A DNA stretch of 10,633 bases from Myxococcales bacterium (lineage in GTDB: Bacteria; Myxococcota; Myxococcia; Myxococcales; Myxococcaceae). Under the pieces are notes generated by a model that was not told the origin of the DNA, searched no databases, and was given only the letters and a program-made list of their open reading frames with translations. The stretch is taken from the NCBI GenBank assembly GCA_003153055.1, contig PMBV01000505.1, positions 345 through 10,977 of the forward strand. The letters are read 5' to 3'. Of the stretch, positions 1 to 10,464 are shown one piece after another. Position numbers and translations under genes: made by a program. Every line of letters starts with the position of its first letter. The first letter of the stretch is position 1.

Positions 1-159
1 GACCCCTTCTTCACCACCAAGGAGCGGGGCACCGGGCTCGGCCTGGCGTTGGCCCGTGGGCTTGCCCGCCAGCACCACGGAGAGCTGACCCTCGAGGATC
101 GAACCGGCGGGGGCTGCACCGCCGTCCTCACCTTGCCCATCGGAAAGGCCGACCCATGA
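1..159 (+). CDS. Sensor histidine kinase, C-terminal fragment (cut by window edge)
   Basis: This is the last 52 residues of a two-component sensor kinase, read in frame from base 1 to the TGA at 157-159. What is visible is the end of the HATPase_c ATP-binding domain: an F-box-like FFTTK, then the G2 glycine-rich ATP-lid motif [10 protein letters not shown], then the closing helix and strands. The H-box, N-box and any sensor domain lie outside the window. The stop overlaps the start of the next kinase gene as ATGA, so the two are translationally coupled. The ATP-lid and following helix are almost identical to those of the downstream kinase (ARGLARQH, then LTLE), which suggests tandem duplication. 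The class is secure from the motif. The sensed signal cannot be told from this piece. Confidence 0.9.
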
Positions 160-1484
160 GCCGGCTCATCTCGAAGGACGACCTCCATGCCCACGTCATC
201 ACGATGCTGGGGAAGCGCTTCGAGCCCATCGTGCGCGGTCGATGGATTGCGGGGCCCGTGGCGGTCGCCGCGACGGTGCTTCTGTTGTCAGGGGACCAGT
301 CGGTGTGGCGCCGCTGGATGCTCGCGGTCACCTTCGCGGCGGGCGTGGCGAGGATGGTGCTCGAGCGCAGACGCAAGGACATGTCGCTCATGCTGTGGGG
401 CACCAACGACCGTCAAATCGCTCCCGTGGTCCTCATCGCGGTTCTCATCGGCGCGCCCATCTTCGCATCGGGTGGTTTCGACAGCCCCGCCCTGCCGATC
501 ATCATTCCGCTCTGCTTCTTCTACGGAACCATCGCCAGCCCCCGCGTGCTCGTCGCGGTCACCCTCTCGTATGTGGGAGTGGTGGCGCTCTTGGCCCTGA
601 TCTCTGCGCAGGGCCTCATCGACGATCTCATGCCCGTCGTCTTCGGAGGCGGCTCGGGCCTGCCGGCCTCACCCCCGCTGCTCTACGCCAAGGCGGTGGG
701 CGTCGCCTTCACGCTCGGGTGGGCCGCGCTGGTCGCCCACCTCGTGCAAGAGGTCTTCCGCAAGGTGTTCTCCGAGGCCCTCGACGCCCGCGACGAGGTG
801 CTGAAGAGCCACGACGAGCACACCAGGGAGCTGACCGCGCTGTCGGGCGAGCTGGCCCACGAGCTGAAGAACCCGCTGGCGAACGTACGGGGGCTGGCCG
901 TGCTGGTGGGCCGCGATGTCCACGGCAAGGGCGTCGAGCGGCTCGAGGTGCTCCAGCACGAGGTCGAGCGAATGGAGGAGATCCTCCACGACTTCCTCAC
1001 CTTCTCGCGGCCCCTCTCGCCGCTCAACGCCGAGGTGGTGGACCTGCCCTCGCTGTGCGCGTCGGTCTTGACCCTGCACGAGGGCGTGGCCGCTTCGAAG
1101 GGCATGCGTCTCTCGTCACCCCCGACTGTCGGCGTCTCGTGTGACCCGAGGAAGGTGAAGCAGATTCTCATCAACCTGGTGCAGAACGCACTCGAGGCCA
1201 GCCCACCCGGCGCCGAGGTCGAGCTGGTGGTGCGCGCCGAACCAGGGCACGACGTCGTGGTGGAGATTCGAGATAGGGGCACAGGGCTCTCTCCGGCGGT
1301 CCGCGAGCGCCTCTTCGAACCTGGCACCACCACCAAGGCCCGGGGAACAGGCCTCGGTCTCGCGCTGGCCCGAGGGCTCGCTCGCCAGCACGGTGGCGAC
1401 CTCACGCTCGAGAATCGTGAAGACGGTGGGTGCGTCGCCTCGCTGAGACTCCCCGCCCTCACCCCCACCGAGGAGCGCTCATGA
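156..1484 (+). CDS. Membrane-bound sensor histidine kinase (HisKA + HATPase_c)
   Basis: This is a 442-residue sensor kinase that autophosphorylates on histidine and would pass the phosphate to the regulator encoded next. Residues 1-200 carry about six hydrophobic stretches (roughly 31-45, 55-69, 87-104, 111-127, 130-150, 177-197), so the N-terminus is a multi-pass membrane sensor with no recognisable extracellular domain. A short linker leads to the HisKA dimerisation helices with the H-box [13 protein letters not shown], giving His235 as the likely phospho-acceptor. The ATPase domain shows an N-box (Asn340, Asn344 in [10 protein letters not shown]), a G1 box DRGTGL (373-378), an F-box around Phe387 and a G2 box [10 protein letters not shown] (396-405). 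All catalytic boxes look intact. The start is the ATG inside the ATGA overlap with the upstream kinase. The stop overlaps the regulator start in the same way. The stimulus is unknown. Confidence 0.95.
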
Positions 1485-2842
1485 CGGCGCGTGTCCTGGT
1501 CGTCGACGACGACGCGGTCGGCCGATACACGCTCCGAGGCCTGCTCGAAGACGAGGGCCTCACTGTCGAGGAAGCCCCCGACGGAGCGGCGGCCCTTGAG
1601 CGACTCAAGCAATCAGACTTCGAGCTCGTCATCTCGGACCTCCGAATGCCCAAGCTCGACGGCCTCGAGCTGTTGCGCCAGGCGCAGGCGCTCAGTCCCC
1701 CGCCGCGCATCATCCTCCTCACCGCCCACGGCTCGGAGCGACACGCCGTCGAGGCGATGAAGCTGGGCGCGCTCGACTACTTCCGCAAGCCCTTCGACGT
1801 CGAGGAGGTGTTGACGGTGGTGCGGAGATCCATCGCCACCCTCGAGCTGGAGCGGGAGAACGAGCAGCTCAAGGGCGAGGTCCACCTGCTCCACTCGCTC
1901 GTCTTCGCCTCCCCGGCCATGTCACGGCTGGCGCTGCTGGTACGACGGGTGGCGCCCCGCGACGTCACGGTGCTCATCACCGGAGAGAGCGGCACCGGCA
2001 AGGAGCGCGTCGCCGAGGCCTTGGTGCGCGGGTCGAGGAGAGCCGACAAGCCCTTCGTGCAGTTCAACTGCGCGGCCTTGAGCCCCGAGCTGGCCGAGGC
2101 CGAGCTCTTCGGCCATGCGCGCGGCGCCTTCACCGGAGCTGTCCGCGCCAGGGCGGGCCTGTTTCGCGAGGCCGACGGAGGAACGCTGCTGCTCGACGAG
2201 GTCGGCGAGTTGCACCCCGGCACCCAGGCGAAGCTCCTGCGGGTGCTCCAGGAGAGCGAGCTGCGCCCAGTGGGAGAAGACCGGCCCCAGCATGTCGATG
2301 TCCGAATCCTCGCCGCCACCCACCGAGATCTCCCGGCCCTGGTCGCCGCGGGGCGCTTCCGGGAGGACCTCCTCTACCGGCTCAAGGTGGTGTCTCTCAC
2401 CGTGCCACCGCTGCGGGAGCGGCCCGAGGACATTCCCGTGCTGGCGAGGCACTTCCTCTCGCGGTCGGCCAAGCGCTTCGGCGTGGCGACGACCCAGGTG
2501 ACGCCCGAGCTCCTCGGCCGGCTCACCGCTTACAGCTGGCCAGGGAACGTGCGCGAGCTCGAGAACGCCCTCGAGAGCGCGGTGGCCCTGTCGCCCGATG
2601 GCACCATCGAGCTCGCTCATCTGCCCGACCCGACCCAGCCCGCCCAGCAGGTGCCCTCACCCACCAAGTTCAAAGAGCGGGTCGAAGCCTATGAGCGCGG
2701 CCTCATCGTCGCGGCGCTGGACTCGTCGAAAGGCAACCAGAGCGAGGCGGCCCGACTCCTCGACATGAGCCGGGCGACACTCCAAGACAAGATTCGCAAG
2801 TATGGGTTGAACCACGACCCGGAGCTTGAGCCCGAGGGCTGA
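1481..2842 (+). CDS. NtrC-family sigma-54-dependent response regulator
   Basis: This is a 453-residue cytoplasmic transcription activator with the classic three domains. The receiver (about 1-120) has the acidic cluster Asp9-Asp11, phospho-acceptor Asp53 in SDLRMPKLDG, Thr81 and Lys103. The AAA+ domain (about 140-370) has Walker A GESGTGKE (168-175), the sigma-54 contact loop GAFTGA (215-220, intact), Walker B LLLDE (Asp239-Glu240), an arginine-finger region FRED (293-296) and sensor II WPGNVRELEN (353-362). A Fis-type helix-turn-helix closes the protein (about 418-442). With GAFTGA intact it should remodel sigma-54 polymerase. I prefer the ATG at 1481 over an in-frame ATG at 1430 because it sits in an ATGA overlap with the kinase stop, has GAGGAG at 1470-1475, and begins exactly at the receiver fold. 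It is the cognate partner of the adjoining kinase(s). Its target promoters are not identifiable here. Confidence 0.96.
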   Translation: MTARVLVVDDDAVGRYTLRGLLEDEGLTVEEAPDGAAALERLKQSDFELVISDLRMPKLDGLELLRQAQALSPPPRIILLTAHGSERHAVEAMKLGALDYFRKPFDVEEVLTVVRRSIATLELERENEQLKGEVHLLHSLVFASPAMSRLALLVRRVAPRDVTVLITGESGTGKERVAEALVRGSRRADKPFVQFNCAALSPELAEAELFGHARGAFTGAVRARAGLFREADGGTLLLDEVGELHPGTQAKLLRVLQESELRPVGEDRPQHVDVRILAATHRDLPALVAAGRFREDLLYRLKVVSLTVPPLRERPEDIPVLARHFLSRSAKRFGVATTQVTPELLGRLTAYSWPGNVRELENALESAVALSPDGTIELAHLPDPTQPAQQVPSPTKFKERVEAYERGLIVAALDSSKGNQSEAARLLDMSRATLQDKIRKYGLNHDPELEPEG

Positions 2843-2899: not shown

Positions 2900-2914
2900 A
2901 GGGACATCGTCCCT
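2900..2914. terminator. Short hairpin between convergent genes (weak terminator candidate)
   Basis: AGGGAC at 2900-2905 and GTCCCT at 2909-2914 form a perfect 6-bp stem with a 3-base loop. The hairpin lies between the regulator stop and the convergent minus-strand gene, and it overlaps that gene's TAG. There is no clear T-run on either side, so this is at best a weak bidirectional terminator. The remaining bases from 2843 to 2912 show nothing else recognisable. Confidence 0.25.
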
Positions 2915-3464
2915 ATTCTGTTCTGACGAACTTCGGCGCAGTACCCATTCGCCAGCGCCAGGCGAAGCCGGCGTTGAGGGAGCCACCGAAGCCAGGCACC
3001 AGCCCGCTGTTCGTCAGAAACACGTCGCCCTCGAGCCAGACATGGAGCCCGCGCAACGCTACGTCGGTGTCGGCGCGGCCGAAAGGCGTGACTCCGAGGA
3101 CCAACGGGAAGAACGCGTAGGGAATGCCCTTGAAGGTCCCGAAGAACCGCACCATGGCGCCAGCGCCCGCGGCCACCGAGAACCGCTCGACCCCAATCTC
3201 CCCGAGGACCGCGGCATCGACCGACCCGTTGAACGGCATGGCTTCACCACGCGCGAGCACCGAGAACCGGTCGCCGAGCTGAACGCCGAGCTCCGCGACG
3301 ACGCCCAACCCAGGCGAAGACCCGGGGACCGCGGCTGCGCCAATGCCCAGCCCAGCGCAGACGCGGGGCAGGAGGCGTGCGCTCTCGAGAGTCTCCGCGA
3401 CGGCTGGATCCGGCTGCGTCGGCTCTGCGCCCCACACCGTCGCCTCCGGTTCGGCCGAATGCAT
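2913..3464 (-). CDS. Hypothetical protein, outer-membrane-barrel-like, probably N-terminally truncated
   Basis: This is a minus-strand reading frame of about 183 residues from ATG at 3464; a TTG at 3515 would add 17. From about residue 35 onward it alternates glycine/alanine-rich and hydrophobic segments, with a phrase like [13 protein letters not shown] followed by PGSSPGLG, and further segments such as [12 protein letters not shown] and [11 protein letters not shown]. This is the rhythm of small beta-barrel or surface proteins that are common hypotheticals in myxobacteria. It ends after an aromatic strand (NAGFAWRW), so the C-terminus looks natural. It has no signal peptide at any usable start, and the first ~30 residues (acidic, proline-rich) look non-native. 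I infer that the 5' end was lost at the junction with the GH62 remnant. The ribosome-binding site is weak. No function can be assigned. Confidence 0.5.
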
Positions 3465-3567
3465 CGTCACACCCCCGGCTGGCGGGTACAACTTCAGATG
3501 CGCGCGCCCCGCCAATGGACGTCGCGAGGATCAAGGAAGGATAACCGGCCCTTTTTCAGAACCTGCG

Positions 3568-4011
3568 ATGCCGATCGGCAGCTTCCCCGGGAAGTCCGGT
3601 GCACAGACGACCATCATGACCGACACCACCGCCAACCTGTTCGAGGCGGTGGAGGTCTACACGGTCAGGGCGGCGAGCCCCCAGTACCTCATGATCGTCG
3701 AGGCGATGGGCAGCCACCGGAGGTACTTCCGCTCCTTCACCGCGACCAGCCTCTCGGGTACGTGGACGCCGCTGGCCGCGTCCGAGAGCGCTCCTTTTGC
3801 CGGCGCGAACAACGTCACCTTCAGCGGCAACGCCTGGACCACTAACACTAAACATCAGCCAGGCGATCTGGTTCGAAGCAATCCCGACCAGACCCACACC
3901 ATCGACCCGTGCAACCTGCAACTGCTCTACCAGGGCTACCAGGTCGGGAGCAGCACGAGCAATTACAACACCATCCCCTGGAGACCGGGCTTACTCACGC
4001 TGCAGCGGTAG
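3568..4011 (+). pseudogene. GH62 alpha-L-arabinofuranosidase, C-terminal remnant
   Basis: Intact GH62 enzymes are secreted and remove arabinose side chains from arabinoxylan with a five-bladed propeller domain of roughly 300 residues. Here only about 147 residues survive, from MPIGSFPG to the natural C-terminal strand [11 protein letters not shown]. Recognisable family segments in order are [67 protein letters not shown] and [13 protein letters not shown]. The Glu in NLFEA (residue 26 of the remnant) corresponds, from my memory of the family, to the general acid. The N-terminal half, which carries the general-base and pKa-modulating aspartates, is absent. There is no signal peptide, no Shine-Dalgarno sequence before the ATG at 3568, and the frame upstream of about 3540 does not resemble GH62. 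I judge it a dead fragment. The reading frame has no stops, so the deletion may be recent. Confidence 0.82.
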
Positions 4012-4427
4012 CGCGCGTCGAGGTCACCTGCCTCCGAGAGGAGCGTCGCACGAGAAGAGCGAGCCAGTCGCTCGATGACATCCCGCAGCTCTCGCGACAA
4101 CACCTTCACCAGCGGCGCGATGTCCCCATGGGGCACCGGTGCGCTCGCGGGCGACGGGGCCTCGCGGAACACCGCGTTTCTTTCCCGCGCGCACTTCGGC
4201 CTCGCCAAGCTTTTCTGCAGCTCCTCCTCGAGGATCCGCAGAAACCCGGAGGTGCCATCGAAATCGCCAGCGTCAAGGGCAGGCGACCTTGGGTCGGAGA
4301 CTGCGGCTCCCTTGACCCCGTCTCCCCGACGGCACTGGGCATGGCATGGAGGTCCTTGGACGACCCGCTCGGGCCTACTCGACAGGCAACCAATAGGCAG
4401 CGCCTCTCTACGGCCATCATCACCCAT
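3963..4427 (-). pseudogene. Possible minus-strand coding remnant, unknown
   Basis: This stretch between the GH62 remnant and the immunity gene has one minus-strand frame that looks protein-like over roughly 4012-4265, with helical, charged segments such as FLRILEEELQKSLARP and LVKVLSRELRDVIERLARS. The first ~55 residues of the frame, and the part below 4012 that is antisense to GH62, look like noise. An ATG at 4427 lies 8 bases downstream of the immunity-gene stop but has no Shine-Dalgarno sequence. Composition returns to GC-rich here, unlike the toxin/immunity pair. It could be a broken fragment of a resident gene, a second degenerate immunity gene or a chance frame. I do not recognise a family. 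Confidence 0.25.
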
Positions 4428-4435
4428 AGCAGAAC

Positions 4436-4918
4436 CTACTCAGTCGGACGCAACGAAACAGCCATCTCCAGCACAATGTCCGCGCAATTGACCCCACCGC
4501 CACGAGACGGCTGCTCCTTCAATTCATCAAAAACATACACCACATCAACCCGATGACCCAGACGAAACAGCCGCACGTCGACGCTATCACTAACATAAAT
4601 CCCAACAGACCGCCCCAAACCATCACTCAACTTCAGATCGACAGTATTGTCAATTTCACCCTCATCCTGACCAGCAGCATAGACTCGCAGTACGACCCCG
4701 GACAAAAACACCAACGGCATCTTCCCCTGCGCAATGCTTTCCCACCACTCCCGCGCACCAAACAGACCATGCACCCCCTTGAGCCCAATACGCGGCTTCG
4801 AAGCATTTAGCGTCAGGGCTTGAGCATCCGAAACCTGCCCGGGATCCAATCTCAATTCCTCCGAAAGCTGATACACCAACTTCACAGGAACACCAACATC
4901 ATCCAAACGCAGCAACAT
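4436..4918 (-). CDS. Putative immunity protein of an orphan polymorphic toxin
   Basis: This is a 160-residue soluble protein with no signal peptide or membrane segment. I do not recognise its family by sequence. It opens with MLLRLDDVGVPVKLVYQL and contains a WWESI segment and a beta-rich second half (VYAAGQDEGEID, VDVRLFRLGHRVDVVYVFDEL). The role is inferred from context: it directly follows, and overlaps by 20 bp, the orphan toxin domain on the same strand, which is the standard order for toxin then cognate immunity. The start is well supported, since AGGAGG (plus-strand positions 4925-4930) sits six bases before the ATG. Base composition is much lower in G+C than the flanks (about half G+C over 4561-4680), which suggests acquisition by transfer. 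It would bind the ADP-ribosyltransferase tip and protect the cell. Confidence 0.65.
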   Translation of the reverse strand: MLLRLDDVGVPVKLVYQLSEELRLDPGQVSDAQALTLNASKPRIGLKGVHGLFGAREWWESIAQGKMPLVFLSGVVLRVYAAGQDEGEIDNTVDLKLSDGLGRSVGIYVSDSVDVRLFRLGHRVDVVYVFDELKEQPSRGGGVNCADIVLEMAVSLRPTE

Positions 4919-5315
4919 TCAACGCCTCCTGGCGAACCCGCTCGAACAACACAAGATTCCGGCTGAAAATCTCGATTGCCCTACCCTGACCCAATTGCGT
5001 GGTCATCTGCCCTCCCTCGACTTTGAATCTAGCATTGCTCTGCATCCACCCTCCCGCCCTTGTCGGCATACCTGGAAACTCAAGTGCAGCTGGCTCATTC
5101 GCGGCAATCCCGATTTCCTGCAACTGCGCCGAGGTACCTGGCGCTGTGGTCAGTCGAACCAGTACGCCGCGGTACTCCGACGAATAGGTAAGGGAGGGCG
5201 AGATCGACGTCTCCGTAGTTGGCATCAACTTACCTGTCCGCAACAGCCGATCGTAATGAGCCTTCGACATCGTCCGATACATGATTTCGTTGCCATGCGC
5301 GTCAAACTCCAGCAC
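4899..5315 (-). CDS. Orphan Rhs-type toxin C-terminal domain, TreTu-like ADP-ribosyltransferase
   Basis: This domain of about 138 residues resembles C-terminal toxin tips of Rhs and related polymorphic toxins annotated as TreTu family, thought to ADP-ribosylate elongation factor Tu. Visible family-like segments are EIMYRTMSKAHYDRLLRTGKL, TSISPSLTYSSEYRGVLV, a PGMP...GGWMQSNA segment, and FKVEGGQMTTQLGQGRAIEIF. In the R-S-E pattern of these transferases, the candidate catalytic residues are the Arg in YRTM, the Ser in ISPS and the Glu in EGGQ. No delivery domain (Rhs repeats, PAAR, signal) is attached. The frame stays open upstream to 5462 and reads NPLAP just before the GTG at 5315, which is typical linker sequence before such tips. 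No ATG, GTG or TTG precedes 5315, and no Shine-Dalgarno sequence precedes 5315 or the inner ATG at 5282. It is therefore likely a displaced, poorly or non-translated toxin module. The TreTu name is from memory; the toxin-tip class is firmer. Confidence 0.7.
   Translation of the reverse strand: MLEFDAHGNEIMYRTMSKAHYDRLLRTGKLMPTTETSISPSLTYSSEYRGVLVRLTTAPGTSAQLQEIGIAANEPAALEFPGMPTRAGGWMQSNARFKVEGGQMTTQLGQGRAIEIFSRNLVLFERVRQEALNVAAFG
4925..4930 (-). promoter_or_regulatory. Consensus Shine-Dalgarno of the immunity gene
   Basis: Read on the minus strand this is AGGAGG, six bases before the ATG at 4918. It lies inside the last codons of the toxin frame (Gln-Glu). It fixes the immunity start and allows translation of the immunity protein even if the toxin frame is not translated. 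Confidence 0.8.
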
Positions 5316-5484
5316 CGGCGCTAGTGGATTTGTCGATCGTGTGGCAACTGCGCCTACCGGCGAATTCCTGACCTCTACGGCGACAGATGACTCTTCGGCG
5401 TATGAATCGCTGCAAACATAAACATCACAGGCCCTGCAATCTTTATACCGATCAAGCCTGCCCTATCTGGGATGCCCTTCCCCG

Positions 5485-5542: not shown

Positions 5543-5612
5543 CACACGTATACGCACGCATCGCGCAAGGCGCCGTCTCGGCGCCGATTCTTCTTTCACT
5601 CAGGGGAGTCTC

Positions 5613-8600
5613 ATGCCGAACCTCATCCCAGCACAGAGCATCAACCTCCGGGTCCCGACCCCCGTGGCGAGCGCCAACCTCGCGATCACCAGTAGCCATG
5701 GCTGGTCCTTCTCGCCCGACTGGAATGGCTGGCAGTTCGTCGTGCCCGGCGCGGCCGTGAACCTCTCGCTCACGCTCCCCAAACCGCAGGCCGTCCAGTT
5801 GAGCTTCGTCATGTGCTGCATGGCCTATCAGGGGCACACGAACAACCCAGTGACGCTACGTGTGAACGGATGGACGCTGTTCGCGGCCTTCGAGCCGCAC
5901 CGGCAGAGTTTCGTGCAGTTCACCTTCTACGTGCCGGCGCACTGGCTCGTCGCAGGCGCCAACAGCCTGGTCCTGAGCCTCGACGGGAATTCCACGACAC
6001 GGGCGACCTTCTGGTCGTTCAACGTCGCAGGTATCGTCACTCAGACCACGCAGGCCACGAGCATCAGCTTCGAGACGCCCAACCCTGGCGCGACCGACAT
6101 CATGTCGGTCCCACTCTACGCGGGATGCCAGTACGACTCCCGATACAACGCGTGGCAGATCTCCGTGCGGGGCGGCTACATGAAGTTCAACCTCTACCTC
6201 GACCAGCCACGGCTGATCGCGATCACGATGAACTTTTGTTCGATGATGTCGGGTGGAGGGACGAACAACCCCTTCTCGATCACGGTCAACGGCCAGAACC
6301 TGCTCGTCAACTATGATCCACACAACGTTGGGTTCCACGACGAGCAGTGGCTCGTTCCCGCCAATTGGATGGTCACTGGCAACAACACGATCGTTCTCAC
6401 TCTGTCGGGATCAGCGACGACGGCGGTGGATTTCAAGCGCTTCGGCGCAGCGGCTCAGGTGCTGCCCGCACAAATCACTCCGGTGACGCTGGCGCACGAG
6501 AACGGTCGGCTGATTGCGTCCTGGACGACGATGCCGAACGCCACGAGCTACGAGATCGCCTTCTATCGCGGCGCCGACCACACGAAGCCGGTGTTCTCGA
6601 CGACCGGTTTCCTGGGCCTCGGCGTCGTGCTCCCCTATGAGGCGATCCCGGGTGACTATGCGGTTCGCGTGCGGCCATGGACCGACAATGTCACCGGCGC
6701 GTGGACTGACTTCGTCACAATCACGCTGGCCAAAGCGATCTTCTTCCTGTCCTCGTCCGGACAGCAGAACCCCGGGCTGGCCCGCCTCGCGCTCGAGGAC
6801 CTCGGCGTGGTCATCTACGGGAACGCCGACAACCTCCACTTCGAGGGGCTTGCCGACACGGTTCAGATCGCGCAAGCGGGTACCCTCGGATACGTGTCGG
6901 CCGCGTACGCGACCGCCCTGACGCCGGCACAGATCGCCTCGCTCCCCACGAACCAGCAGCCGATCGCCAATCAGTGGAACTACTACTACTCGCCCGCCTA
7001 TCAGGCCATCCTCGCGGACACGACCAACCAGAACAAGAGCTGGGGCGACAAGCTGATCGATTCACCCCCCATCGCGCAGACGGTACTGCCCAGCATGCTT
7101 CGGGCGGTCATCGAACCCGAACGCGACGCGAGCGCCGAGGGAGAAGCCGCCGGCCCCATGTCGCCAGAGACGAGGGCTGAGCTCGTCTCGGAGCTCAAAA
7201 CGCTTCTAGGCGACTCCTCGGCGGCGCACCGCCTCGCCCAGTCGTTCGTGTCGCTTCCAGCGGAGACACGCAAGCGCCTCCTGGTCGCCGAGCTCCGGCC
7301 ACATCTGCTGGCACTGCTCGACGCCACGCCGAAGGTCGCCATGCGGGGCACGGTCGCCGTGGGGGTGATCGTGGTGCAGTCGTCGCGCGACGTCGGCGGC
7401 ACGCCCGCCGGATGGAAGGTGAAGGCCGCTGTCGCCGCCGGCGCGAGAGCCATCACCATCGATTCAGGAACGAACGACCCTCAACCTGGCGATCGTCTTT
7501 CGATTGGTGCATATGAGTTCGGCGTGGCGGCATGGGATCCGACCACCACGACGTTGACCGCCGACACGGCGGCGCCCGCGGCGATCCCTGTGGGCACCGC
7601 CGTCACGACAGTCGCGGCGCCGCGCAAGGGACCCCAGTTTTCGCCAGCAGATCGCAATGTCGCGGTGCAGAAAGCGGCGGACGCGTTCCAGCGCATCCAG
7701 AACGACGCGCCGGAGTTCAGACCGAACAATTGGGAGACCGCTCAGGACGTCGCGGACGGCGCCAAAGTCTTTCAGGTGACCGGTGGACAGACCTTCCCGC
7801 GTGGCGGTGACACCTTCATGCTCCCAGGAAGCGCGACCAACTACAACATCACGCAGTATGACATCGGCACCTCGACCGTTCACACGCGCGACGCCCTTCC
7901 CGCCGTGGCCGCGGGAACCCGACTCACCTTCTCCGACGCCCAAGACCTTCGGATGGTCGTGCAACCGTACGATGCCGCTATCGACGTTGGGTACGACTAC
8001 AACCCGAACGACGACGCCAACGAGGGCGACAGCTACTGGGTACTTCCCGCGGTCGCCACGGTACGGATCGGCGAGCAGAGCTTCCCGGCCACGTGGGCCG
8101 GGCTCGAAGCCATGCGTCAGGCGTTGCAGACAAGCACCGGCGCAGGCGGGGCGCTGCTGGTCTTCATGTCGAACTTCCCCACGAACTGGTTCGCGTTCGC
8201 GCAGAAGGCGCAGCAGCTCGCGGTGCTATCGCGAAGCTTGAGGACCTTCAAGACGGCCTACAGCGCCGCTGTCGGGGGGCAGCTCGACAGCCGCGATCAG
8301 GCGTCGGTCCGGAACTGGCTCAACGCCGGCGGGCTCGGCACCGACCGCAGCATCCCGGCCAATGAACCGCTTGCGATAACCGTGCAAGAGGCGGGGCGCC
8401 GGTGGAGCATCGCCACCAAGGTCGAGGAGAGAACAAGTCATGAGCTTATGCAGAGAACATTTCTCGTGCTCGCCGTAGGCTTACCGAATCCGAACACCTT
8501 CGCCGTGTTCCATGGCGAGGGCTGGGGGCTGCCACGCTGGGACCAGGTGATACGGCACGAGACGTACCACCTGTTCGACGCTCCCGACGAGTACGCGGGC

Positions 8601-9512
8601 GTCGGCACCCCGTGTTCGGATTGCGGTGGCACCTACGGTGTATACAACATTCCCAACGGGAACTGTGCCACCTGCGCCTTTCCTCTGCAGGACTGCGTGA
8701 TGGACTCATCGGACAACGTGGCGTGCGATTACACGAAGAGCATCATCGGCTGGTCAGATGTGCTCGTGGAGGTCACCACCGATCCCACCTCCCAGAACAA
8801 CAACGACCCGATGTGGGTGAAGCTCGGCGACGGGATGATGTTCCGGCTCTCCGATCCGATCATCGATGATCGTCAGCCAGGAGCGCGCGACCCGTATGCG
8901 CTCGGCTACACGCGCATCACCCGCGCCGACGTTCAGGCGATCGTGGTCGGCAACAACAACCCCGCCGAGATCCGGACGCCATGGAAGGTCAAGCGCATTC
9001 GCGTATGGGTGCAGGGGGCGCTGATCTACAATCGCGACAACCTCGGTGTAACGATCGACGCCGCGCACACATGGTGCTTCGCGCCTGGCTTCTCCGGGAA
9101 CGTGAGCGGGTACTCGGTCACAATCACCACCGGCACCAAGTGGTTCGCGGGCACCGGCGATAGCGTCTACATCACGCTCGGTGGCAAGAAGGTGATCCTC
9201 AACGAGTTCGTGGTGCTCGACGACGTCCCCTACGGCGGCTACACCGGATTTTTGGCGGGATCGGTCAAGACCACCGCGCTCTCGCCCGACGGCATCGACA
9301 TCCCGAACAATCAGACCGTCACGTTGACGAAAGAATTGGCCACACTCCTGATCGAGCCGCTGTTCGGCGGCGACGACTGGTATCCCGCGCACATCAAGAT
9401 CATCGCCCACCGCATGACCGGCGGAGACGTGGTGGTCCTCGACAAGGACATCAACACCTGGATCGGTCTCGGCAACTACAGCTGGTCGACGAAGGTCCAG
9501 AACAATCCGTGA
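5613..9512 (+). CDS. Giant multidomain zinc metallopeptidase with carbohydrate-binding-like repeats and PLAT-like C-terminus
   Basis: This 1299-residue protein has AGGGGAG (5602-5608) before its ATG. Domains in order: two tandem beta-sandwich repeats (about 13-140 and 154-281) aligning without gaps at a spacing of exactly 141 residues (W40/W181, NNP 77/218, VNG 84/225, VPA 107/248), resembling galactose-binding-like CBMs; an FnIII-like segment (about 288-372); an unassigned segment (373-490); a helical linker (about 500-570); two ~60-residue beta modules (607-667, 713-773) like those in phage structural proteins; a zincin domain (about 780-1060); and a PLAT/LH2-like domain (about 1165-1285, with GTGDSVYITLGG). 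The zinc motif is H982-E983-T-Y-H986, with Asp992 a likely third ligand in FDAPDEY. CVM at 1028-1030 is a Met-turn candidate, beside a cysteine cluster (CSDC, CATC). It resembles M64/M7-type zincins only distantly. No signal peptide is visible (MPNLIPAQSINLRV). It is in an operon with the GH18-like gene. Confidence 0.88.
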   Translation: MPNLIPAQSINLRVPTPVASANLAITSSHGWSFSPDWNGWQFVVPGAAVNLSLTLPKPQAVQLSFVMCCMAYQGHTNNPVTLRVNGWTLFAAFEPHRQSFVQFTFYVPAHWLVAGANSLVLSLDGNSTTRATFWSFNVAGIVTQTTQATSISFETPNPGATDIMSVPLYAGCQYDSRYNAWQISVRGGYMKFNLYLDQPRLIAITMNFCSMMSGGGTNNPFSITVNGQNLLVNYDPHNVGFHDEQWLVPANWMVTGNNTIVLTLSGSATTAVDFKRFGAAAQVLPAQITPVTLAHENGRLIASWTTMPNATSYEIAFYRGADHTKPVFSTTGFLGLGVVLPYEAIPGDYAVRVRPWTDNVTGAWTDFVTITLAKAIFFLSSSGQQNPGLARLALEDLGVVIYGNADNLHFEGLADTVQIAQAGTLGYVSAAYATALTPAQIASLPTNQQPIANQWNYYYSPAYQAILADTTNQNKSWGDKLIDSPPIAQTVLPSMLRAVIEPERDASAEGEAAGPMSPETRAELVSELKTLLGDSSAAHRLAQSFVSLPAETRKRLLVAELRPHLLALLDATPKVAMRGTVAVGVIVVQSSRDVGGTPAGWKVKAAVAAGARAITIDSGTNDPQPGDRLSIGAYEFGVAAWDPTTTTLTADTAAPAAIPVGTAVTTVAAPRKGPQFSPADRNVAVQKAADAFQRIQNDAPEFRPNNWETAQDVADGAKVFQVTGGQTFPRGGDTFMLPGSATNYNITQYDIGTSTVHTRDALPAVAAGTRLTFSDAQDLRMVVQPYDAAIDVGYDYNPNDDANEGDSYWVLPAVATVRIGEQSFPATWAGLEAMRQALQTSTGAGGALLVFMSNFPTNWFAFAQKAQQLAVLSRSLRTFKTAYSAAVGGQLDSRDQASVRNWLNAGGLGTDRSIPANEPLAITVQEAGRRWSIATKVEERTSHELMQRTFLVLAVGLPNPNTFAVFHGEGWGLPRWDQVIRHETYHLFDAPDEYAGVGTPCSDCGGTYGVYNIPNGNCATCAFPLQDCVMDSSDNVACDYTKSIIGWSDVLVEVTTDPTSQNNNDPMWVKLGDGMMFRLSDPIIDDRQPGARDPYALGYTRITRADVQAIVVGNNNPAEIRTPWKVKRIRVWVQGALIYNRDNLGVTIDAAHTWCFAPGFSGNVSGYSVTITTGTKWFAGTGDSVYITLGGKKVILNEFVVLDDVPYGGYTGFLAGSVKTTALSPDGIDIPNNQTVTLTKELATLLIEPLFGGDDWYPAHIKIIAHRMTGGDVVVLDKDINTWIGLGNYSWSTKVQNNP

Positions 9513-9546
9513 TTCCCTCGCTCACGACCTCCAGAGGAGTTCTCCC

Positions 9547-10464
9547 ATGTCCACGACGCGCAACACCGTGATCTACGCAAATGGCCTATTCGGGACGAAC
9601 GACCCGCCCACCAACGCGCGACAGACGGCCGAGCTGAAGCGCGCGCAGTTTGGCACCGCACTGCTCTGGACGCTGCACGTGCACGGCAATGGCGATTTTT
9701 ACTACAACGACGCCCCGATGGTGCAGCAAGGGACGTTCAACTCCGCCCTCGCCTACATGGCGCCGCTCGTGAAGGCACTGCCGGACGGTGGCGGCGTGCA
9801 TCAGGTGTACTTTGGAATCGGGAGCGGCGGCGCGGCCGACTTCGCGGCGATCAAGGAGCTCCTCGCCAGCGAGGCCGGTTCGAAGGGGCTCGTCTCGAAC
9901 TTCCAGGCGCTTCTCAGGACCATCCCTGTGGTGGGTTTCGATTTCGACCTCGAGGAGTTCCCCCTCGAGGACTACACCTCGACGATCGTGCAGCTCACGC
10001 TCCTGCTGCAGCGCCAGTTCGGAAGCGGGATCACCTACTGTCCGTACACCGAGCCCAACTTCTGGCGGGACTGCCTGGCACGCGTCTATGCTTCGGCAGG
10101 GCGGCAGCTCGTACGCTGGTACAATCTCCAATGCTACGACGGCGGGCAGTACAACTCACCGGCCGAATGGGCGGAAGGGCTCGCGAGCTCGCCGGCTCCG
10201 CTCGGGATCGCTTCGCCCGCGGCGTTCATCGTGCCGGGGTACTGGGCGCGGCACAAGACGGACGGCGGATCGTACAGCGGCGACTGTCCGGACGCCGTGC
10301 GGTCGACGTTCCAGAAGCTCTCTCGATCGTTGCCGGGAATAGACGGAGGGTTCATGTGGAACTCGGGCGACATCTTCGCGAACGAGCAGTCAGGGGCATG
10401 CGGGACGGCGCCGATGACGATCGCGGCGTACTCCACGGCGATCGTGAGCGGACTGGGAGGGTGA
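9547..10464 (+). CDS. GH18-type chitinase-like barrel protein
   Basis: This 305-residue single-domain protein has the features of a glycoside hydrolase family 18 TIM barrel. They include an early strand with HQVYFGIGSGG, the signature VGFDFDLEEF with Glu136 in the catalytic-acid position, a later NLQCYDGGQYN segment with Tyr197 in the place of the GH18 substrate tyrosine, and the last strand GGFMWNSGD with Trp271. In the DxxDxDxE motif Asp132, Asp134 and Glu136 are present, but the first Asp is Val129, so activity may be altered or low. Family members hydrolyse beta-1,4-GlcNAc polymers such as chitin or related glycans. The ATG follows AGAGGAG (9533-9539), and only 34 bases separate it from the upstream peptidase stop, so the two are co-transcribed. 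It has no signal peptide, transmembrane segment or extra chitin-binding domain. A non-catalytic lectin role is the main alternative. Confidence 0.85.
   Translation: MSTTRNTVIYANGLFGTNDPPTNARQTAELKRAQFGTALLWTLHVHGNGDFYYNDAPMVQQGTFNSALAYMAPLVKALPDGGGVHQVYFGIGSGGAADFAAIKELLASEAGSKGLVSNFQALLRTIPVVGFDFDLEEFPLEDYTSTIVQLTLLLQRQFGSGITYCPYTEPNFWRDCLARVYASAGRQLVRWYNLQCYDGGQYNSPAEWAEGLASSPAPLGIASPAAFIVPGYWARHKTDGGSYSGDCPDAVRSTFQKLSRSLPGIDGGFMWNSGDIFANEQSGACGTAPMTIAAYSTAIVSGLGG

What the first reader, a model, noticed from the sequence alone, without database searches (positions are those of the whole stretch)
5613..10464. Two-gene operon pairing a giant lectin-like zincin with a GH18-like barrel, neither with a signal peptide
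Visible: a 34-base gap, matching Shine-Dalgarno sites, and protease plus glycan-active folds in adjacent genes. The big protein carries two CBM-like repeats and a PLAT-like domain, which point to a glycan- or membrane-rich target. Proteins of this kind are normally exported, yet both begin with plain hydrophilic N-termini. Inference: an effector pair that degrades or binds a glycoprotein matrix or prey surface, released by lysis, a contractile injection system, vesicles or another non-Sec route. I know of no described system with this exact pairing.
Basis: partly seen in the sequence, partly recalled or inferred. Interest (0 to 1): 0.72.

Follow-up and report, generated by a model that had tools for sequence, protein, structure and literature searches.

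The report
Leaderless metzincin protease beside GH18 glycosidase
Two neighbouring bacterial genes encode a large, unusual zinc protease with binding-type domains and a chitinase-type enzyme; neither carries the usual export tag, and the two have not been shown to belong together anywhere else.

Summary
The description holds. Both ORFs, the 34-base gap and ribosome sites are real; no upstream ATG/GTG/TTG start adds a leader. The 305-aa protein is a GH18 barrel (model pLDDT 91.9; Foldseek E 8.8e-10; DxDxE invariant in 31 of 31 rows). The 1299-aa protein has two homologous N-terminal repeats, two homologous beta domains, a metzincin-type zinc site and a C-terminal PLAT domain. The zinc site is unusual: canonical-spacing HExxHxx(G/N/D)xxD-E-Y, then CxM and a Cys exactly 10 residues on, in 9 of 9 proteins compared (window plus eight). 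That resembles the igalysin (M64) structural-zinc site without the igalysins' diagnostic extra residue; one relative also matches M6 weakly. Relatives look leaderless too, but leaderless GH18 enzymes have precedent (Serratia ChiB/ChiC). Conserved pairing is unsupported: the one other readable big locus lacks the partner, its genome shows none, and 0 of 4 genomes or plasmid records with GH18 relatives hold the protease. Most contexts were unreadable. Best view: a local pair of leaderless hydrolases, freed by lysis or another non-Sec route; the protease is a new metzincin variant.

The parts
5613..9512 (+). gene for 1299-aa leaderless multidomain metzincin-type metalloprotease
   Evidence: four full-length relatives at 54-76% identity
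5631..6038 (+). N-terminal repeat 1 (residues 7-142), CBM-like by weak hits only
   Evidence: 34% identical to repeat 2, E 2.8e-29; weak PF22895 hit
6054..6461 (+). N-terminal repeat 2 (residues 148-283)
   Evidence: weak PF14683 hit
6480..6737 (+). FN3-like stretch (residues 290-375)
   Evidence: sequence pattern only; no FN3 hit in Pfam; inference
6732..7403 (+). accessory region (residues 374-597) shared with the 672-aa relative P0042; propeptide-like by inference only
   Evidence: blastp 24% over 233 columns, E 6.5e-13
7404..7607 (+). inserted beta domain A (residues 598-665)
   Evidence: homologous to domain B, E 5e-7; 1e-5 to 4e-12 in four relatives; absent from P0042 and the G031 protein (alignment); beta nature from pattern and from domain B's model
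7722..7928 (+). inserted beta domain B (residues 704-772)
   Evidence: the best-predicted part of an otherwise poor model, all strands
8556..8594 (+). zinc-binding motif H982-E-T-Y-H986-L-F-D-A-P-D992-E993-Y994
   Evidence: HExxHxFxxxDEY in 9 of 9 proteins compared
8694..8726 (+). candidate Met-turn C1028-V-M1030-D and C1038
   Evidence: CxM with Cys at +10 in 9 of 9; same spacing as C606-I-M608 and C616 of IgAse (PMC12237041)
9093..9473 (+). PLAT/LH2 domain (residues 1161-1287)
9513..9546 (+). 34-base intergenic gap with AGAGGAG ribosome site
   Evidence: no terminator-like site inside it
9547..10464 (+). gene for 305-aa leaderless GH18 TIM barrel
9940..9954 (+). GH18 catalytic DxDxE (D132, D134, E136)
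   Evidence: invariant in 31 of 31 rows
10123..10137 (+). GH18 active-site strand N193-L-Q195-C-Y197
   Evidence: N and Q in 31 of 31, Y in 30 of 31; aligned to NFQFY and NVQFY of two solved GH18 chitinases

Best explanation
The two genes are probably co-transcribed and encode two leaderless hydrolases of extracellular type. The first is a metzincin-clan metalloprotease of a new subfamily: an accessory, propeptide-like region and a catalytic domain shared with shorter relatives, elaborated here with two binding-type repeats, an FN3-like linker, two inserted beta domains and a C-terminal PLAT domain. The second is a GH18 endo-glycosidase of chitinase or endo-N-acetylglucosaminidase type. Proposed working: both fold in the cytoplasm and are set free by lysis of part of the population or another non-Sec route; then the protease binds a glycan- or lipid-rich matrix and cuts protein while the GH18 enzyme cuts GlcNAc-linked glycans. 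Shown: domains, motifs, leaderlessness of both ORFs. Inferred: co-transcription, activity, release route, target. The pairing looks local rather than a conserved system.
Against: No holin, endolysin or injection gene recognised among 7 ORFs profiled. The catalytic-domain model is poor (pLDDT 45.5), so the metzincin fold is not confirmed. Residue +7 of the window's zinc motif is Asp where metzincins have Gly or Asn. The window protein itself and P0042 show no M6 hit.
Confidence: 0.45

Rival explanations
1. Two unrelated genes that happen to lie in tandem in a variable region; each works alone.
For: L001 has the big gene without the partner; 0 of 4 genomes or plasmid records with GH18 relatives hold the protease; the 2.5 kb upstream holds an orphan RHS-type toxin-immunity pair and an arabinofuranosidase remnant, as in a rearranged region.
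Against: 34-base gap, same strand, similar GC3 (0.84 and 0.85), complementary chemistry. Only one other big locus was readable.
Confidence: 0.35
2. Cytoplasmic enzymes: the GH18 protein trims imported GlcNAc oligosaccharides and the zincin acts inside the cell.
For: No leader flagged in 31 of 31 aligned GH18 rows by a crude rule; sugar-use type neighbours in two loci.
Against: PLAT and CBM-like repeats are surface- or polymer-binding modules by family knowledge; distant GH18 relatives with leader-like N-termini exist (Paenibacillus L005, P0033).
Confidence: 0.15
3. Effectors of a contractile injection system or similar device encoded elsewhere in the genome.
For: Leaderless, multi-domain, enzymatic; not excluded, since no genome of the source is held.
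Against: Nothing of the kind among the 7 ORFs profiled; no IMG/VR relatives of either protein or of P0042, no phage-record relatives of the small protein or of P0042 (the big protein was not searched there).
Confidence: 0.05

Closest known systems
GH18 chitinases / endo-beta-N-acetylglucosaminidases (4ac1, 2y8v, 6k7z)
   Different: 15-18% identity; first Asp of DxxDxDxE is Val in the window (Asp in 22 of 31 rows); no leader, no binding module
Igalysins, peptidase family M64 (IgAse, PMC12237041)
   Same: Asp third ligand followed by Glu-Tyr; [quoted passage not shown]
   Different: lacks the extra residue before the Gly position that marks igalysins; the fourth structural ligand (C619) is Thr here; IgAse has a signal peptide
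Thuringilysins / M6 (immune inhibitor A) and snapalysins (M7)
   Same: canonical HExxHxxGxxD spacing with Asp third ligand (stated for thuringilysins and snapalysins in PMC12237041; that thuringilysins are M6 is recalled); weak M6 hit in P0041, weak M7 hits in P0041 and P0042
   Different: far under the M6 model's cut-off (23.4 against 110.8 bits); CxM/Cys+10 site; leaderless
Serratia ChiB/ChiC and Yersinia entomophaga type 10 secretion cargo
   Same: leaderless chitin-active enzymes released without a recognised signal (PMC5778951, PMC10847048)
   Different: no holin/endopeptidase cassette seen here; the word metalloprotease does not occur in PMC10847048

Membership tests
GH18 | (beta/alpha)8 barrel like solved GH18 enzymes | tested here: met
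   (model is of P0001, one residue different from the window)
GH18 | DxxDxDxE motif with catalytic Glu | tested here: met
   DxDxE invariant in 31 of 31; first Asp is Val in the window's protein, Asp in 22 of 31
GH18 | Pfam PF00704 match | tested here: inconclusive
   window protein none at E <= 1; 20 of 31 rows at E <= 0.1, best 2.1e-8
GH18 | hydrolysis of chitin or N-glycan | not testable with these tools
   needs an assay
metzincin clan | HExxHxxG/NxxH/D | tested here: met
   spacing and Asp ligand in 9 of 9; but Gly or Asn at +7 in 6 of 9 and Asp in 3 of 9, the window among them
metzincin clan | Met-turn after the motif | tested here: met
   CxM in 9 of 9 by sequence; position in space not shown
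metzincin clan | catalytic-domain fold | tested here: inconclusive
   model pLDDT 45.5, not searched
igalysin (M64) | extra residue: HExxHxxxGxxD | tested here: not met
   canonical spacing in 9 of 9; definition from PMC12237041
igalysin (M64) | structural zinc by Glu, Met-turn Cys and two further Cys | tested here: inconclusive
   three of four positions match by spacing; the fourth is Thr, and four other Cys lie between motif and Met-turn
M6 domain | TIGR03296 curated cut-off | tested here: not met
   P0041 23.4 against 110.8 bits; window protein and P0042 no M6 hit at E <= 1
PLAT/LH2 domain | Pfam PF01477 cut-off | tested here: met
   P0041 and P0042 over the cut-off, P0040 not; window piece 22.9 against 23, so met through relatives
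type 10 secretion cargo | no signal peptide | tested here: met
   (rule-based, no SignalP)
type 10 secretion cargo | dependence on a holin/endolysin cassette | not testable with these tools
   no source genome held
conserved two-gene system | pair recurs in other genomes | tested here: inconclusive
   0 of 1 other readable big locus; 0 of 4 genomes or plasmid records with GH18 relatives; other contexts unreadable

The most novel reading that the evidence does not exclude
An undescribed family of leaderless metzincins, thinly spread and built on one core with or without binding and PLAT modules, carries an igalysin-like structural zinc site on a canonical metzincin motif and is delivered, together with leaderless GH18 glycosidases, by a non-Sec route not yet recognised in these organisms.
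Probability: 0.2. Interest if true: 0.65.

Novelty: new variant of a known kind. Interest (0 to 1): 0.4.

Why it matters
If the protease core is as read, it links igalysins with the Asp-type metzincins (thuringilysins, snapalysins) and adds a leaderless branch; its binding modules beside a GH18 enzyme make it a candidate for attack on glycoprotein matrices. Leaderlessness shared by relatives points to a non-Sec release route that secretome predictions based on signal peptides would miss.

Tried and rejected
Rejected, because it fails its own control: the window's own pair is listed with 11052 and 4230.

Mobile or viral origin: no relatives in IMG/VR by pattern scans, none of P0042 or the small protein in phage records, none of the big protein or P0042 on plasmids; the small protein has 4 plasmid records at 26-33% identity. 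Anti-phage defence: no PADLOC hit for the two proteins, P0042 and the toxin-like ORF. A PHROG hit (E 0.0077 over 26 residues) was judged chance.

Inhibitor-I9-like identity of the accessory region: suggested by its pattern, no Pfam support; kept as inference. The catalytic-domain model was too poor for a fold search. PF09471 (M64) was not found in G001 or G187; this says little.

Promoter-like sites: none found, 0.8 expected. Terminator-like sites: 3 found, 3.4 expected, one of them (5569-5585) just upstream of the big gene; not above chance.

Literature: in the titles and abstract starts listed I saw no description of this pair or of this protease; passages were read of PMC5778951, PMC10847048 and PMC12237041 only.

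Rows left out of counts: the nine-protein motif count leaves out P0039 (ends before the motif), L001 (in-frame stop) and the 88-aa G035 frame (partial). The pairing test leaves out plasmid hit H4 and the weak GH18 matches in G163 and G197; three of its four members are plasmid records, not whole genomes.

Full report
What is there. Two + strand ORFs, 5613-9512 (1299 aa) and 9547-10464 (305 aa), lie 34 bases apart, each behind a purine-rich ribosome site (GGGGAG, AGAGGAG). Neither has an ATG, GTG or TTG between its start and the nearest upstream in-frame stop. Their GC3 (0.84, 0.85) is like that of the upstream kinase and regulator genes (0.87, 0.88). The source genome is not held, so the organism is unknown.

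The big protein. Six proteins matched in the whole-protein search, in which only the 7994 best candidates were scored: itself, four full-length relatives at 54-76% identity and one 779-aa partial. A search with the C-terminal 528 residues added three more. Domains from the N-terminus: two homologous repeats (E 2.8e-29; in the four relatives E 9e-18 to 2e-31; 100 shuffles gave at most 20.4 bits against 91), whose CBM nature rests on weak hits only; an FN3-like stretch (pattern only); an accessory region shared with P0042 (E 6.5e-13); two inserted domains homologous to each other (E 5e-7), the second modelled as beta strands; the catalytic part; and PLAT, which the A3 profile alone did not find in the PDB.

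The catalytic part. In nine of nine proteins compared (window, P0035-P0038, P0040-P0042 and a 347-aa ORF of genome G031) the motif is HExxHxFxxxDEY, followed by CxM and a Cys exactly 10 residues after that Cys. PMC12237041 (passages read) gives the metzincin consensus HExxHxxG/NxxH/D, with Asp as rare third ligand in snapalysins and thuringilysins, and describes in IgAse, an igalysin, D550-E551-Y552, the Met-turn C606-I-M608-R, and a structural zinc held by E551, C606, C616 and C619. The present family has the matching D992-E993-Y994, C1028-V-M1030 and C1038, but normal spacing where igalysins have one residue more, and Thr at the C619 position. NCBIfam's M6 domain matches P0041 at E 4.7e-5, far under its cut-off, but not P0042 or the window protein; M7 matches are weaker. 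I therefore place it in the metzincins as a new variant between igalysins and the Asp-type families, by sequence only: the model of residues 663-1299 was poor (pLDDT 45.5).

Leaders in relatives. The G031 protein and P0042 share the core without the N-terminal repeats; their starts look leaderless, but the G031 start was chosen by me inside a longer open frame and P0042 comes from a 2.2-kb contig, so these two are less firm. A crude rule (positive residue, then a hydrophobic stretch, thresholds mine) flagged 3 of 42 proteins: P0033, a plausible leader; P0032; and P0036, where it marks a stretch aligned with PVASANLAI of the window and is judged a false positive. It flagged 3 of 3 N-termini that look like leaders by eye (L005 and two G187 proteins), 0 of 4 other starts (L002, L006, L007, G031), and 0 of the 31 aligned GH18 rows, one of which, P0013, lacks the N-terminus. 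Of four full-length big relatives three are unflagged, the fourth is P0036. So a mis-annotated start in the window is an unlikely explanation. Distant GH18 relatives with leader-like N-termini exist (Paenibacillus L005, P0033).

Pairing. The genome-contig scan, with two peptide patterns, found one locus of the big gene, L001, a 4.6-kb contig of a MAG titled Alphaproteobacteria. There an M23-type gene (by inspection) follows in convergent orientation, and the GH18 profile finds nothing in that genome, of unstated completeness, or in any of 76 genomes of its order; the big protein occurs in 1 of those 76, L001's own. The same GH18 profile does match elsewhere, so it can ring. L001's copy has one in-frame stop just before the zinc motif; P0040 is, by inspection, an intact near relative of that part. 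P0039 and P0041 are listed on contigs of the same length from the same source and may be two halves of one interrupted gene (inference). The GH18 profile matched 3 of 299 genomes of L001's phylum, one strongly, G187, and in G187's order 1 of 244, G187 itself. Its neighbours there are GH3-like and LacI-like ORFs by inspection; on a Pseudoalteromonas plasmid a LacI regulator, a sugar porter and a catalase are annotated. G187 and three plasmid records with GH18 relatives hold no protease match, 0 of 4. The protease profile matched 3 of 398 genomes of the phylum: G001, G031 and, weakly, G035. The contexts of the closest relatives, which are metagenomic, could not be read; so conserved pairing is unsupported but not disproved.

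How it may work. Leaderless GH18 enzymes have a documented route: ChiB and ChiC of Serratia have no obvious canonical signal peptide, and loss of the holin-like ChiW or the endolysin-like ChiX impairs secretion of the whole chitinolytic machinery (PMC5778951, passages). In Yersinia entomophaga the enriched released proteins, toxins and chitin-modifying enzymes among them, nearly all lack a signal sequence and are freed by lysis of a cell subset (PMC10847048, passages). A lysis-type or other non-Sec release followed by joint attack on a glycoprotein- or chitin-rich target is the explanation I commit to at 0.45, with chance tandem placement as the main rival at 0.35.

Surroundings. The stretch from about 3340 to 5320 is a patchwork: an arabinofuranosidase C-terminal remnant (+) and an orphan RHS-type toxin tip with its likely immunity gene on the - strand, the latter two with lower GC3 (0.64 and 0.56), which suggests a variable region.

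Noticed in passing
window 4899-5315 (-) and 4436-4918 (-): Orphan polymorphic-toxin C-terminal tip (53% identical to the end of an RHS core protein on a Burkholderia savannae plasmid, H6) followed by a probable immunity gene; relatives of the two lie side by side on Cronobacter plasmid pCCO1 (H5, H14). The toxin frame opens at 5462 with no RHS core before it.
   Followed up: partly
window 3343-4011 (+): ORF whose 3598-4008 part is up to 63% identical to Streptomyces plasmid genes annotated as non-reducing end alpha-L-arabinofuranosidase family hydrolase; looks like a C-terminal remnant. The label GH62 is recalled, and a missing N-terminal part was not searched for elsewhere.
   Followed up: partly
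window 1-2842 (+): Tail of one histidine kinase (1-159, by inspection), then a second kinase (156-1484) and an NtrC-type sigma-54 activator (1481-2842) in tight tandem.
   Followed up: no
window 2913-3515 (-): 200-aa ORF of high GC3 without Pfam or NCBIfam hits; looks like a small outer-membrane beta-barrel by inspection only.
   Followed up: no
L001 274-4182: The alphaproteobacterial copy of the big gene carries one in-frame stop six residues before the first His of the zinc motif; an intact near relative (P0040) exists.
   Followed up: no
L014 2348-3391 (-): A 347-aa minimal form of the same zinc-protease core in genome G031, near a transposase-like ORF and an MFS-like ORF by inspection.
   Followed up: partly
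L009 8664-9668 (-): Leaderless GH18 relative between a leader-bearing GH3-like ORF and a LacI-like ORF (by inspection) in genome G187, suggesting a sugar-use role for that branch.
   Followed up: partly
window 5569-5585: Perfect 7-bp GC hairpin followed by a T-rich tail just upstream of the big gene; could be a terminator or leader element, but such sites are not above chance.
   Followed up: no
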